38,287 bases of DNA from Nitrososphaerota archaeon. GTDB taxonomy: Archaea > Thermoproteota > Nitrososphaeria > Conexivisphaerales > DTJL01. Shown one piece after another: positions 4,369 through 20,224 of this stretch (position 1 is its first letter; every line of letters begins with the position of its first letter). The stretch covers positions 1 through 38,287 of the forward strand of contig JAJPJS010000023.1 in the NCBI GenBank assembly GCA_021324115.1, read 5' to 3'. A program made the translations under genes and the position numbers. A model generated the notes under the pieces. The model was not told the DNA's origin and searched no databases. It saw only the letters and a list, made by a program, of their open reading frames with translations.

Positions 4369-5019
4369 TTGCAGGCTGCGAACCTGGTTCAGTTTGAGAC
4401 ACCTACTCAGGCGTGGTACTCCCTGTGGGACCTGTTTGTCTTCCTTGGAGTCGCGGTGGGAGTCGTTGTAATATCCTATCTGGTGTATAACGTCATCCGT
4501 TACAGGTCAAAGACAGACTATGTCCCGTCATACGAAACGAAGGAAAACCCGCACGACCTCAGATTCGTCCTGATGAGCAGCACACTCTCCATAATCGTGC
4601 TCATCATAATAGGTGTCGCAACCATGAATGCCGCTGCTGTTACATTCAACCCGCCCCAGTCAAACAACGTGGTTCACATCAACGTCGAGGGGCATCAGTT
4701 CTACTGGCAGTTCATATATCCAGATGGCCATTCCGAGACCAACAATCTGGTCGTGCCAGCCGGATATGAGGTCATTCTGAACGTAACTTCAGGCGACGTG
4801 TTTCACTCATTCGGTATATCCATGCTGGCAATAAAGATAGACGCCATACCGGGAAGGGCAAACACGGTGTGGTTTGTTGCGCCTCAGCCGAACGTGTACG
4901 TCGACGCCATCAGATGCTACGAACTCTGCGGTGTTGGGCATGCGTTGATGGTTGCGAACCTAACGGTGATGACACCGAACGCTTATCAACAGTGGTATAA
5001 TTCTAACGGGGGCGGCTAA
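4369..5019 (+). CDS. coxB: cytochrome c oxidase subunit II (CuA)
   Basis: A 216-residue subunit II of a heme-copper oxidase. It has two N-terminal transmembrane helices (about 20-45 and 64-86) and an extracytoplasmic cupredoxin domain. The binuclear CuA site is intact: H146 in VFHSFGI, and C183, E185, C187, H191 and M194 in CYELCGVGHALM. The subunit should therefore accept electrons from a soluble or anchored one-electron carrier and not directly from quinol. The likely donor is the blue-copper protein of the same cluster, since no cytochrome c gene is visible. The start is TTG, chosen because a TATA box lies about 29 bp upstream and because the next upstream in-frame options would extend past it. 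The oxidase core gene follows after 2 nt. Confidence 0.95.
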   Translation: MQAANLVQFETPTQAWYSLWDLFVFLGVAVGVVVISYLVYNVIRYRSKTDYVPSYETKENPHDLRFVLMSSTLSIIVLIIIGVATMNAAAVTFNPPQSNNVVHINVEGHQFYWQFIYPDGHSETNNLVVPAGYEVILNVTSGDVFHSFGISMLAIKIDAIPGRANTVWFVAPQPNVYVDAIRCYELCGVGHALMVANLTVMTPNAYQQWYNSNGGG

Positions 5020-5021
5020 AC

Positions 5022-7469
5022 TTGTCCGAACCCATCCCTACAGGTAACGTCCCAACCACCGGGGCCAGCTGGGTCAAAAGGTGGCTTTTCACAACCAATC
5101 ACAAGGATATCGGGATACTTTATTTCGTCACCTCCTTTTATTTCGCCTTCGTTGCGGGGCTTCTCGCGAGTCTGATCAGGGGCCAGCTCGCGTACCCACT
5201 GAATGATTTCCTTCAGCCTGCAGAATACAACGCCGCCGTGACCGCCCACGGTCTTCTGATGATCCTCTGGTTCCTTTCCCCGCTCGGGGTCGCGTTCGCC
5301 AACTACATCGTACCCCTGCAGATAGGCGCAGACGACCTGGCGTTCCCGAGATTGAACGCGCTGAGTTACTGGCTTTATCTCGTTTCTGGACTTCTGCTTA
5401 CATTGAGCTTCTTCATGCCGGGAGGTGGCTTCGGGGGAGGATGGACGTCTTATGCGCCGCTGAACTCGAGCCAGTACAGTCCTGGCCCGGGGCCCACGAT
5501 GGCGTTTATGGGATTCATACTTCTCTGCGTTTCAATCACGGTGGGCAGTGTAAACTTCATCACCACAATACTGTACAAACGTGCCCCCGGAATGGGCTTC
5601 AGACAGATACCCATGTTCACCTGGTTCACCTTCTTCACCCAGGTGTTGATGCTGACGGCCTTCCCTTCGTTGCTTGCCGCTCTGATAATACTCCAGTCTG
5701 ACAGAATATTGGGAACGCTGTTTTTCTCAGCGCAGGCAGGGGGTGCACTATTGTGGGACAACCTGTTCTGGTTCTTTGGGCATCCAGAGGTTTACGTGGT
5801 TCTGCTTCCTGCTTTTGGCGCTGTCCTGGAGATCCTGCCTACGTTTACAGGCAGACCTCTTGCGGCCAGGACGGCAATTCTTGTAGCGGCAGGTTTCCTT
5901 GTCGTGCCTTTGAGCGTCTACGTTTTTGCCCATCACGAATTTGTTACCGGGATACCAATTTCTCTGAGGGAGGGATTCACGATAACCACATTCGCGATAT
6001 CGGTTCCGTTCGACGTGATGGTTCTTTCCATGATTCACAGCCTCACCGGCGGAAGGATTCGTTTGAAAACGCCAATGCTGTTTGCAATAGCGGCGGTCGT
6101 GATATTTATCGTCGGGGGGATATCGGGCGTTTTTCTGGCCTCATTTGTCCTTGACATAAACCTCAGGGGAACATACTTTGTTGTCGCCCACTTTCACTAC
6201 GTGATGGCGGGGGCGACCATATTCGGGCTGTTCGCCGCGACTTACTACTGGCTTCCAAAGATGACGAACCACATGTACAGCGAATTCTGGGGCAAGGTGC
6301 ACTTTGTTACTTCTTTCGTAAGTTTCAACATACTCTACTTCCCGATGTTCTTCCTTTACGAAATGCCCCGCCGTATCTACACTTATTCCCCTGATACAGG
6401 GTGGGGTACGCTGAATCTCATAGCTAGTATAGGCGGCTTCATATTCGTCGCAAGTCAGGTGTTCTTCCTTCTCAACCTGGTAGTAACGGTGAGGGGTAAG
6501 CATGCCACAACTGCCAATCCCTGGCACGCGATTACACCAGAGTGGGTCCCTGGCGTCTTCGCACCGGCCGGACTGCTGCCCAGTGGGGCGGTTGCGGACG
6601 GACCTGTGGGGATGGAGTCTGACCATTCAGGAGCTCATCATTCGGAACACCTCAGCCAGAGACCCCTGACCCTCGCGGCTGGGGCTGGCCTCGCGCTTGT
6701 GGGGCTCTCCATGGCCAACCTGAATGTGGGTCTGCCCTTTGTCGGGGTCGGTCTCCCGTTTCTGCTCGCAGGAATAGTGGTGGTTGGCTGGTCGCTGGTC
6801 GGCTGGGCCTACGACGACCTTAAGGGCAAGTTCAGGGTTCCAGAGGACGGCGCAGGAGAAAAGTGGCCGTCGGCAAGGATGCCGAAGGTCAAGCTTGGAG
6901 TCTGGACATTTCTCGCGTCTGAGGTGCTTGTCTTTGGCTCACTTCTGAGTAGCTACATGTACATCAGGGCGGAGGAGGGAGCCCTCTGGCCCGCCCCCGG
7001 CTCGATTCATTCCATAGCAATAGGCACGCTCAACACGATTGTACTTCTGTCAAGCAGTCTGACTGCACTCCTTGCTCTGCGCTACGCCCGTTCCGGCCAA
7101 AACAGGAAGGTGGTACTCTGGATGCTCGTCACATTTGCACTTGGCGCGACGTTCCTTATCGTGAAGGGTTTTGAGTGGTCAGACCTGATATTCCAGACAG
7201 GCTTCCTCTCCTTCCTTGCTGGTCCGAGCACGCTCTCCGCGCCCTTTACTCCGCAGAGCGGCCTTCCCGGAAGTACATACTTCCTGATAGTTGGACTTCA
7301 CGGAGCGCACGTTTTCGCAGGTCTCATGGCGATGCTGTACATAATACGGAAGGCCTGGAAGGGTGGATTCTCGAAGGAGAACCACAGGGCGGTCGAACTC
7401 TTTGGCCTGTACTGGTCCTTCGTCGACATCGTGTGGATATTCATATTCCCGCTGTTCTACCTGATGTGA
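5022..7469 (+). CDS. fused cytochrome c oxidase subunit I+III
   Basis: An 815-residue fusion of the oxidase core (about 1-510) and subunit III (about 620-815). Low-spin heme ligands are H76 and H392; the high-spin heme ligand is H390 (VAHFHYVMAG). CuB ligands are H254, H304 and H305, and Y258 in GHPEVY is the His-crosslinked tyrosine expected in A-type oxidases. The subunit III part begins near KLGVWTFLASEVLVFGS and ends with the typical GLYWSFVDIVWIFIFPLFY. Between them are about 100 residues with a His-rich cytoplasmic or loop stretch and two extra helices. I+III fusions of this type occur in SoxM and in some bacterial caa3/ba-type oxidases. It starts with TTG 2 nt after subunit II, so it is co-transcribed with it. 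Confidence 0.95.
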   Translation: MSEPIPTGNVPTTGASWVKRWLFTTNHKDIGILYFVTSFYFAFVAGLLASLIRGQLAYPLNDFLQPAEYNAAVTAHGLLMILWFLSPLGVAFANYIVPLQIGADDLAFPRLNALSYWLYLVSGLLLTLSFFMPGGGFGGGWTSYAPLNSSQYSPGPGPTMAFMGFILLCVSITVGSVNFITTILYKRAPGMGFRQIPMFTWFTFFTQVLMLTAFPSLLAALIILQSDRILGTLFFSAQAGGALLWDNLFWFFGHPEVYVVLLPAFGAVLEILPTFTGRPLAARTAILVAAGFLVVPLSVYVFAHHEFVTGIPISLREGFTITTFAISVPFDVMVLSMIHSLTGGRIRLKTPMLFAIAAVVIFIVGGISGVFLASFVLDINLRGTYFVVAHFHYVMAGATIFGLFAATYYWLPKMTNHMYSEFWGKVHFVTSFVSFNILYFPMFFLYEMPRRIYTYSPDTGWGTLNLIASIGGFIFVASQVFFLLNLVVTVRGKHATTANPWHAITPEWVPGVFAPAGLLPSGAVADGPVGMESDHSGAHHSEHLSQRPLTLAAGAGLALVGLSMANLNVGLPFVGVGLPFLLAGIVVVGWSLVGWAYDDLKGKFRVPEDGAGEKWPSARMPKVKLGVWTFLASEVLVFGSLLSSYMYIRAEEGALWPAPGSIHSIAIGTLNTIVLLSSSLTALLALRYARSGQNRKVVLWMLVTFALGATFLIVKGFEWSDLIFQTGFLSFLAGPSTLSAPFTPQSGLPGSTYFLIVGLHGAHVFAGLMAMLYIIRKAWKGGFSKENHRAVELFGLYWSFVDIVWIFIFPLFYLM

Positions 7470-13908: not shown

Positions 13909-14832
13909 CTAAATCTTCATGAACCTTCTCATTCCGACCCTCGCCACCAGGTTGATCAGCACAACAATCAGCATCAGGAGGAATGCAGCCAGATATGCCA
14001 GATCATTCGCCTGCGCAAATGGCAGCTGGGAATAGGTCCAAACTACATAGGTCAGATAGCCGACGGGTGAATGAAACAGCGCAGATGGAAGGTAGTTGGA
14101 AAAACTCGCCGTGTAAAGAAGAGGAGCAGTTTCTCCCACCGAAATACTTATGGAAAGCAAAATGCCGGTAACTATTCCGGGCAATGCTATTCTCAGGTTG
14201 AGCCTGTTGATCATGTCTGTTTTGGAGCTCCCCAGTGCATACGCCCCCTCCCTGATCGAGTCGGGCACCTTCCTCAGCGCAACATCCGTGGTCCTGAGGA
14301 TGTATGGCAGCATCAAAATGGCGAGCGTAAGTGACGCTGCCACGGCTGAGAACCCCCAGCCAAAGTAAAGCACGAAAACGAAGAAACCCGCATACCCGAG
14401 TATTATGGAGGGAACGCCCGCCAGCACATCCGAAACGAACCTGACCATTCCCGCATATCTATCCCTCTCTCCGGCGAATTCAGCGAGATAGATCCCTGAG
14501 AGCACGCCAAGGGGCACGGCGAAAAGTGAAGACATTCCGATTATCAGGGCGCTTCCCGCTATAGCGTTGGCCAGCCCCGCATTCCCCACACCCGTTCCAC
14601 CTGTCGTGGTCTGGGTCAACCTAGCCAGGGATATCAGTGTTAGACCCTTGTACGCAAAAAGGTACAGCATGTCCAGCAGTGGGTAAAGGACAACGATCAC
14701 ACTGAGCACAGCAAGGAACGCAATTATTCGCCATTTCAGCTTCCTTATCCTGTTGTTCCTTGCGATTCGCTTGTCCCTCCACGGGAATGGGGCCCTTGTT
14801 TGCTGGACAGTTTCTGTCTCTTCTGGCATCAT
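13909..14832 (-). CDS. pstA: phosphate ABC transporter permease PstA
   Basis: A 307-residue inner permease subunit with about six transmembrane helices. The coupling loop that contacts PstB is [20 protein letters not shown], the EAA-type motif typical of PstA. Its partner PstC ends 7 nt upstream and pstB begins 5 nt downstream. The N-terminus ([13 protein letters not shown]) is hydrophilic and cytoplasmic. With PstC it forms the phosphate channel. Confidence 0.94.
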
Positions 14833-19613: not shown

Positions 19614-19624
19614 CTTATTAAATC
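19614..19624 (+). promoter_or_regulatory. TATA box of the tRNA-Arg gene
   Basis: CTTATTAAATC centred about 25 bp upstream of the first tRNA base at 19644. Confidence 0.5.
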
Positions 19625-19643: not shown

Positions 19644-19738
19644 GGGCCCGTCGTCTAGTATGGATCAGGACGCTGAAGCATATGGGCTGCGTATGCCTTC
19701 GGAGCCGGAGATCCGGGGTTCAAATCCTCGCGGGCCCG
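19644..19738 (+). tRNA. tRNA-Arg (anticodon UCG) with a 19-nt intron between positions 29 and 30
   Basis: The acceptor arm pairs GGGCCCG (19644-19650) with CGGGCCC (19731-19737), followed by G73; CCA is not encoded. The D stem is GTCT/GGAC, the T arm CGGGG-TTCAAAT-CCTCG (19714-19730), and the variable loop AGATC. Read straight through, the anticodon arm does not fold; removing 19676-19694 gives stem CTGGC/GCCGG and loop CTTCGGA with anticodon TCG at 19699-19701. The intron borders form a complete bulge-helix-bulge: outer helix AGG/CCT, central 4-bp helix ACGC/GCGT, two 3-nt bulges TGA and ATG cut after their second base, and an inner stem AGC/GCT with a 6-nt loop. Confidence 0.9.
19676..19694 (+). 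other. non-canonical tRNA intron (position 29/30)
   Basis: A 19-nt archaeal intron inside the anticodon stem, not at the usual 37/38 site. The splice sites are TG^A and AT^G in the two BHB bulges. It is the only exon junction I could find that restores five anticodon-stem pairs. Confidence 0.85.
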
Positions 19739-19759: not shown

Positions 19760-19767
19760 TTTTTTTT
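19760..19767 (+). terminator. oligo-T terminator of the tRNA gene
   Basis: A run of eight T residues 22 nt after the tRNA, fitting the T-tract terminators of archaeal RNA polymerase. Confidence 0.5.
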
Positions 19768-19833: not shown

Positions 19834-19870
19834 GTGAGAAGCCCACGACATTCAGGCGTGGGTAATTCAC
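19834..19870 (-). mobile_element. hairpin resembling an IS200/IS605-family right end
   Basis: An imperfect palindrome with GTGA/TCAC at the outside, an internal mismatch, then CCCACG (19842-19847) paired with CGTGGG (19857-19862) around a 9-nt loop. Hairpins with the wording ATTACCCACG...CGTGGGCTTCTC recur at the right ends of IS605-type elements. That orientation puts the lost tnpB on the minus strand above 19870, where a frame ends exactly at the hairpin (stop TGA in GTGAATTA). I could not recognise TnpB motifs there, so this is a remnant at most. Confidence 0.35.
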
Positions 19871-20011
19871 TCGCTGTTCCACACCAGCGCGGTCCGAACT
19901 CCTTCTCTGTACCCCTGAAAGTTGAGAACAAGGGTTTTTGGATCGGTGAGGATATTCACCCCGGTTATCAGTTTCACTGTGGTCTTCCGTGCGTTAGAGC
20001 CGATATCAATT

Positions 20012-20224
20012 TCAGCGTGGGGTCGACCTGATCAAGATCGACATATGCCCACTGACCCCCTGCGGATCGGTCTCGATCCAGACATGCGCGCGAATCAGTC
20101 TCTCCTTCCTAGGGCTAGTGAAGGTATAGAGCGTACAGTTCGGAGCGGCGGGCGCATCTGAACGTGCCTTATAGAATCTCTGGGCTATAAGATAGTTTGT
20201 CGCTTGCCGGCGCGTCAACTTCAT
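20012..20224 (-). CDS. hypothetical 70-residue protein, perhaps a fragment
   Basis: A minus-strand frame starting MKLTRRQATNYLIAQRFYKA, with GC-rich third positions and normal amino-acid composition (basic N-terminus, then beta-like RLIRAHVWIETDP and SGHMSILIR). After its stop, a second minus-strand frame continues with coding-like sequence (KTTVKLITGVNILTDP) to the hairpin near 19870, so the two may be one gene broken by a frameshift. The family is unknown to me. It lies in the accessory tract between the tRNA and DUF389. Confidence 0.35.
   Translation of the reverse strand: MKLTRRQATNYLIAQRFYKARSDAPAAPNCTLYTFTSPRKERLIRAHVWIETDPQGVSGHMSILIRSTPR

What the first reader, a model, noticed from the sequence alone, without database searches (positions are those of the whole stretch)
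19644..19738. tRNA-Arg(UCG) with a complete BHB intron inside the anticodon stem (29/30)
Seen directly: without removing 19676-19694 no anticodon arm forms. Removing it yields a five-pair stem, loop CTTCGGA and a normal class I tRNA. The junctions fit a strict bulge-helix-bulge: helices AGG/CCT, ACGC/GCGT and AGC/GCT, with 3-nt bulges TGA and ATG. Known: archaeal introns mostly lie at 37/38; stem positions such as 29/30 are best known from Thermoproteales and, as I recall, rare in Euryarchaeota-related lineages. If the host is a Thermoplasmatota, this is notable and has consequences for which splicing endonuclease type it carries.
Basis: partly seen in the sequence, partly recalled or inferred. 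Interest (0 to 1): 0.7.

Follow-up and report, generated by a model that had tools for sequence, protein, structure and literature searches.

The report
Short intron in archaeal arginine tRNA
This is an ordinary archaeal tRNA gene for arginine whose stem is interrupted by a 19-base spliceable intron, of a kind already known from this group of archaea; its main practical interest is that standard gene finders miss it or give it the wrong anticodon.

Summary
Window 19644-19738 encodes a tRNA-Arg(UCG) interrupted by a 19-nt insert (19676-19694) between positions 29 and 30. Of the 18 possible 19-nt excisions in the arm, only this one gives a five-pair anticodon stem. The junctions form a strict bulge-helix-bulge. 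Spliced, ARAGORN calls tRNA-Arg(tcg); unspliced, tRNA-???(tatg). Rfam misses the gene. The same intron site, with different intron sequences, occurs in three related genomes and is absent from other relatives. It is the only tRNA-Arg(UCG) found in a 95%-complete genome.

The speculative part fails. The host is not a Thermoplasmatota but a Nitrososphaeria archaeon, probably of order Conexivisphaerales. Its genome has two separate EndA genes: a catalytic alpha subunit with the crenarchaeal-type loop, and a non-catalytic beta subunit. That fits the broad-specificity (alpha-beta)2 enzyme reported for Thaumarchaeota (PMC4090602). The genome has other non-canonical tRNA introns, and 29/30 is a listed archaeal intron position (PMC4090602). 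This is a new member of a known kind.

The parts
19615..19622 (+). TATA-like promoter element (TTATTAAA)
   Evidence: Sequence; position fits an archaeal TATA box for a transcript starting near 19644. Inference, not tested.
19644..19675 (+). 5' exon of tRNA-Arg(UCG), positions 1-29
   Evidence: Cloverleaf after splicing; ARAGORN on the spliced sequence gives tRNA-Arg(tcg), score 116.1
19676..19694 (+). 19-nt BHB intron AAGCATATGGGCTGCGTAT at 29/30
   Evidence: Unique 5/5-stem excision; BHB 3/4/3 pairs; site conserved in G001, G002, G007
19695..19738 (+). 3' exon of tRNA-Arg(UCG), positions 30-73; anticodon TCG at 19699-19701
   Evidence: the only TCG-Arg gene found in the genome by pattern
19667..19698 (+). 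BHB motif: outer 19667-19669/19696-19698, central 19670-19673/19689-19692, bulges 19674-19676 and 19693-19695, inner 19677-19679/19686-19688
   Evidence: Sequence; scored; shuffle test
19760..19767 (+). T8 run, likely transcription terminator
   Evidence: Sequence; inference

Best explanation
A functional and probably essential tRNA-Arg(UCG) gene with a non-canonical BHB intron at 29/30. Steps: (1) the 95-nt precursor is transcribed from its own promoter; (2) it folds so that exon nucleotides 19670-19673 pair with the intron, presenting two 3-nt bulges; (3) the host (alpha-beta)2 splicing endonuclease cuts between the second and third nucleotide of each bulge (19675|19676 and 19694|19695); (4) the ligase joins the exons, closing the five-pair anticodon stem and giving a tRNA that reads CGA (and CGG by wobble). 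Shown here: sequence, structure, conservation, and the EndA gene complement. Inferred: transcription, cleavage, ligation and essentiality.
For: Single cloverleaf-compatible excision that coincides with a strict BHB; chance 0.07% for the intron-dependent helices. ARAGORN recognises the spliced but not the unspliced sequence as tRNA-Arg(tcg) in four genomes. G001, G002 and G007 have introns of 16, 16 and 14 nt at the same site with different sequences but BHB pairing (outer/central/inner) of 3/4/3, 3/4/2 and 3/3/3; the exons of G000, G001 and G002 differ at one D-loop base. Intron-free orthologs in G004, G006, G012, G015 and other relatives have the same arm uninterrupted. EndA alpha (180 aa) matches Aeropyrum pernix alpha 3p1z_B at E=3.4e-47 and keeps the catalytic His (Ala in the H133A entry 3ajv) and the K44 / basic-46 loop residues; EndA beta (192 aa) lacks the loop and the His. 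Other tRNAs of the genome carry introns at 37/38, 30/31 and 22/23. CGA codons are used (13 of 9239 codons in window genes), and no other tRNA-Arg(UCG) was found.
Against: ViennaRNA prefers a rival fold over the BHB form by 3-9 kcal/mol in the four precursors, though it also fails to give a cloverleaf for the spliced tRNA, so this is a weak objection. In G007 one central pair is an A-C mismatch. No RNA data were available. The genome is 95% complete in 27 contigs, so a second copy cannot be excluded.
Confidence: 0.95

Rival explanations
1. Pseudogene: a tRNA-Arg gene disrupted by a random insertion, the apparent BHB being chance.
For: Generic scanners do not recognise the gene; the precursor MFE is not a cloverleaf.
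Against: All stems of the exons are intact; site and BHB are conserved in three other genomes with different intron sequences; it is the only TCG-Arg gene found; strict BHB at 0.07% by chance.
Confidence: 0.02
2. A different tRNA read without splicing, with an odd anticodon arm (ARAGORN: tatg in G000, cca in the G001 ortholog).
For: ARAGORN calls on the unspliced sequences.
Against: The unspliced calls have broken anticodon stems and lower scores and change identity between orthologs (??? / Trp / none / ???), while the spliced forms are all Arg(tcg).
Confidence: 0.01
3. The precursor folds into a rival intron-anticodon hairpin and splicing is slowed or regulated, so the intron acts as a switch on decoding of CGA.
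For: In G000, G001 and G002 the intron begins AAG, so CUGAAG can pair with CUUCGG across the anticodon (sequences; predicted fold for G000 and G002).
Against: The pairing is not kept in G007 and is not the predicted MFE in G001; AAG may only reflect the bulge A plus the inner helix; no expression data.
Confidence: 0.02

Closest known systems
Non-canonical archaeal tRNA BHB introns (Marck and Grosjean 2003; Sugahara et al. 2008, as reviewed in PMC4090602)
   Same: Short intron outside 37/38 with BHB junctions, in an archaeon with a two-subunit EndA; 29/30 is a listed position.
   Different: The host lineage is a Conexivisphaerales-like branch of Nitrososphaeria, not Thermoproteales; here the motif is strict rather than relaxed.
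Split tRNA-Ala genes of Caldivirga maquilingensis, divided at 29/30 (PMC4090602)
   Same: Same junction position and same type of endonuclease substrate.
   Different: Here the exons are contiguous in one gene (cis intron), not trans-spliced.
Aeropyrum pernix (alpha-beta)2 splicing endonuclease (3p1z, 3ajv)
   Same: The host alpha subunit aligns over 174 residues at E=3.4e-47 with the catalytic His and the specific loop conserved.
   Different: Among solved chains the host beta subunit is closest to M. jannaschii EndA (1a79, E=1e-25), not to the A. pernix beta (E=3.5e-5).

Membership tests
Archaeal tRNA BHB intron | Excision yields a standard tRNA | tested here: met
Archaeal tRNA BHB intron | Two 3-nt bulges separated by a 4-bp helix at the exon-intron junctions | tested here: met
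   (4/4 central, 3/3 outer, 3/3 inner)
Archaeal tRNA BHB intron | Host encodes EndA | tested here: met
Archaeal tRNA BHB intron | Cleavage and ligation at the predicted sites | not testable with these tools
   Needs RNA reads or an enzyme assay
Non-canonical (not 37/38) tRNA intron | Insertion position other than 37/38 | tested here: met
   29/30
(alpha-beta)2 EndA | Separate catalytic alpha and structural beta genes | tested here: met
   Two genes on different contigs; alpha keeps Tyr, His and Lys; beta lacks the His and the specific loop
(alpha-beta)2 EndA | Heterotetramer assembly | not testable with these tools
   No structure or biochemistry; inferred from homology
Split or permuted tRNA | Halves at separate loci or in inverted order | tested here: not met
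   Both exons contiguous and in order

The most novel reading that the evidence does not exclude
The intron's AAG start, which can pair with the anticodon loop in the three same-family genomes, makes splicing of the only CGA-reading tRNA conditional, so the intron regulates decoding of a rare arginine codon.
Probability: 0.02. Interest if true: 0.6.

Novelty: new member of a known kind. Interest (0 to 1): 0.2.

Why it matters
It adds a lineage-restricted case of an anticodon-stem intron in Nitrososphaeria, present in four genomes of two families and absent in close relatives. It also shows that generic annotation misses such genes or gives them a wrong identity (tRNA-Trp for the G001 ortholog), which would make a genome appear to lack an essential tRNA. 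It does not change the picture of which endonuclease goes with which intron.

Tried and rejected
Thermoplasmatota host: rejected. Rfam scan of the window: no hit, presumably because the intron breaks the tRNA model. Named-genome pattern scan: 81 matches; of the archaeal ones, L094 and L154 are the true gene, while L105 (an intron-free tRNA-Arg(UCG) next to a chance match) and L107 (apparently coding sequence) are not; the bacterial matches were treated as chance without inspection. Class-wide pattern scan in 400 genomes: 14 genomes matched, only G000, G001, G002 and G007 are the intron-bearing tRNA; the pattern fixes part of the sequence, so divergent cases could be missed. Intron mobility within the genome: the other introns recovered show no evident likeness to this one by eye. 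G009 lone 3' half considered as a split tRNA: no 5' half recognised; left open, an integration remnant seems more likely. Two-intron tRNAs in the host were not resolved.

Full report
What is there. Window 19644-19738 reads GGGCCCG TC GTCT AGTATGGATCA GGAC G CTG [AAGCATATGGGCTGCGTAT] GC CTTCGGA GCCGG AGATC CGGGG TTCAAAT CCTCG CGGGCCC G. With the bracketed 19 nt removed, every stem of a class I tRNA closes and the anticodon is TCG. Of all 19-nt excisions that leave a 17-nt arm, only 19676-19694 gives five pairs with U33 and R37. A scorer that also varies intron length and loop sizes chooses the same excision with a clear margin. ARAGORN gives tRNA-Arg(tcg) at 116.1 for the spliced form and an uninterpretable tRNA-???(tatg) for the unspliced form. 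Rfam's tRNA model reports nothing at this site, either in the window or in the whole-genome search.

The junctions. Exon and intron form a strict bulge-helix-bulge: outer AGG/CCT, central ACGC/GCGT, inner AGC/GCT, bulges TGA and ATG, with predicted cuts after the second nucleotide of each bulge. Shuffled introns of the same letters give the central and inner helices in 0.07% of trials. A TATA-like box and a T8 run flank the gene at fitting distances (inference). ViennaRNA prefers a different hairpin in the precursor, but it also misfolds the spliced tRNA, so this says little.

Relatives. Two genomes of the same family (G001, G002) and one of another family of the order (G007) carry tRNA-Arg(UCG) with an intron at the same 29/30 site: AAGTCCAACTGCGTAG, AAGCAAAACTGCGTAT and AATGTCGTGCGCAA, with BHB pairs (outer/central/inner) of 3/4/3, 3/4/2 and 3/3/3. 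The third inner pair is C-G in G000 and T-A in G001, a small covariation (read from the sequences). G004, in the same family as G007, and G006, G008, G012-G019 have intron-free orthologs. A pattern scan of 400 Nitrososphaeria genomes found the intron form only in G000, G001, G002 and G007. Either the intron is ancestral to the two families and was lost in the G004 genus, or it was gained twice; the data do not decide.

Host. The order-level relatives include records titled Thaumarchaeota archaeon isolate S016_59_esom (contig of 58,529 bases, same length as G007:C1) and Nitrososphaeria archaeon isolate DRTY1_bin.15 (89,598 bases, same length as G002:C52). DRTY1_bin.15 is a MAG discussed in PMC10833072, a study of Nitrososphaeria; there the aerobic family DTJL01 of Conexivisphaerales is marked by coxAB, and the window encodes proteins that read as cytochrome oxidase subunits (4369-7469, by eye). 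Family DTJL01 is therefore a likely but unproven placement. NCBI taxonomy puts Conexivisphaerales in Nitrososphaerota.

Endonuclease. The genome has two PF01974 genes on different contigs; all 61 genomes searched (the host and 60 relatives) have at least one and most have two. The alpha protein matches the A. pernix alpha chain nearly end to end and keeps its catalytic His and the loop with K44 and a basic residue at 46, described as the Crenarchaea-specific loop. The beta protein lacks the loop and the His. This fits an (alpha-beta)2 enzyme, the type reported for Thaumarchaeota and Crenarchaeota (PMC4090602). Since strict BHB motifs are cut by all EndA types (PMC6379350), this intron by itself says nothing about the enzyme.

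Essentiality. A pattern scan with two mismatches found only this TCG-Arg gene in the genome; Arg genes with GCG, CCG, TCT and CCT anticodons were also recovered. CGA occurs 13 times in 9239 codons of window genes. From standard decoding rules this tRNA would be the only reader of CGA (inference).

Verdict. The finding is real and well described, but ordinary in its lineage: non-canonical introns, position 29/30 and the two-subunit enzyme are all known (PMC4090602 and PMC3218864). The genome has further non-canonical introns (Leu-CAG and Leu-TAG at 30/31, Ile-GAT at 22/23, and less certain D-arm cases in Arg-CCT and Glu-CTC).

Noticed in passing
L228 (G009:C88) 577-623: A lone 3' half of tRNA-Arg(UCG), from position 27 to the discriminator, next to an inverted repeat (ATTACGCGTG...CACGCGTAAT); no 5' half recognised. 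Probably an integration-site remnant, possibly a split tRNA half.
   Followed up: partly
G000 loci L043, L049, L046, L047, L050: Other non-canonical tRNA introns in the host: Leu-CAG and Leu-TAG at 30/31 (similar to each other), Ile-GAT at 22/23, and probable D-arm introns in Arg-CCT and Glu-CTC.
   Followed up: partly
window 19838-19866: GAAGCCCACGACATTCAGGCGTGGGTAATTCA resembles the right end of an IS200/IS605-type element (recalled resemblance, not tested), next to a short minus-strand open frame (19867-20031).
   Followed up: no
L265 (G003:C2 near 14343-14380): A roughly 20-nt tRNA 3'-end fragment followed by the same downstream flank (CTATCATTTGATACTG) as the window gene, without the rest of the tRNA.
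   Followed up: no
L242 (G009:C107:97): A tRNA gene with a G+C-rich insert in its middle, apparently another intron-bearing tRNA.
   Followed up: no
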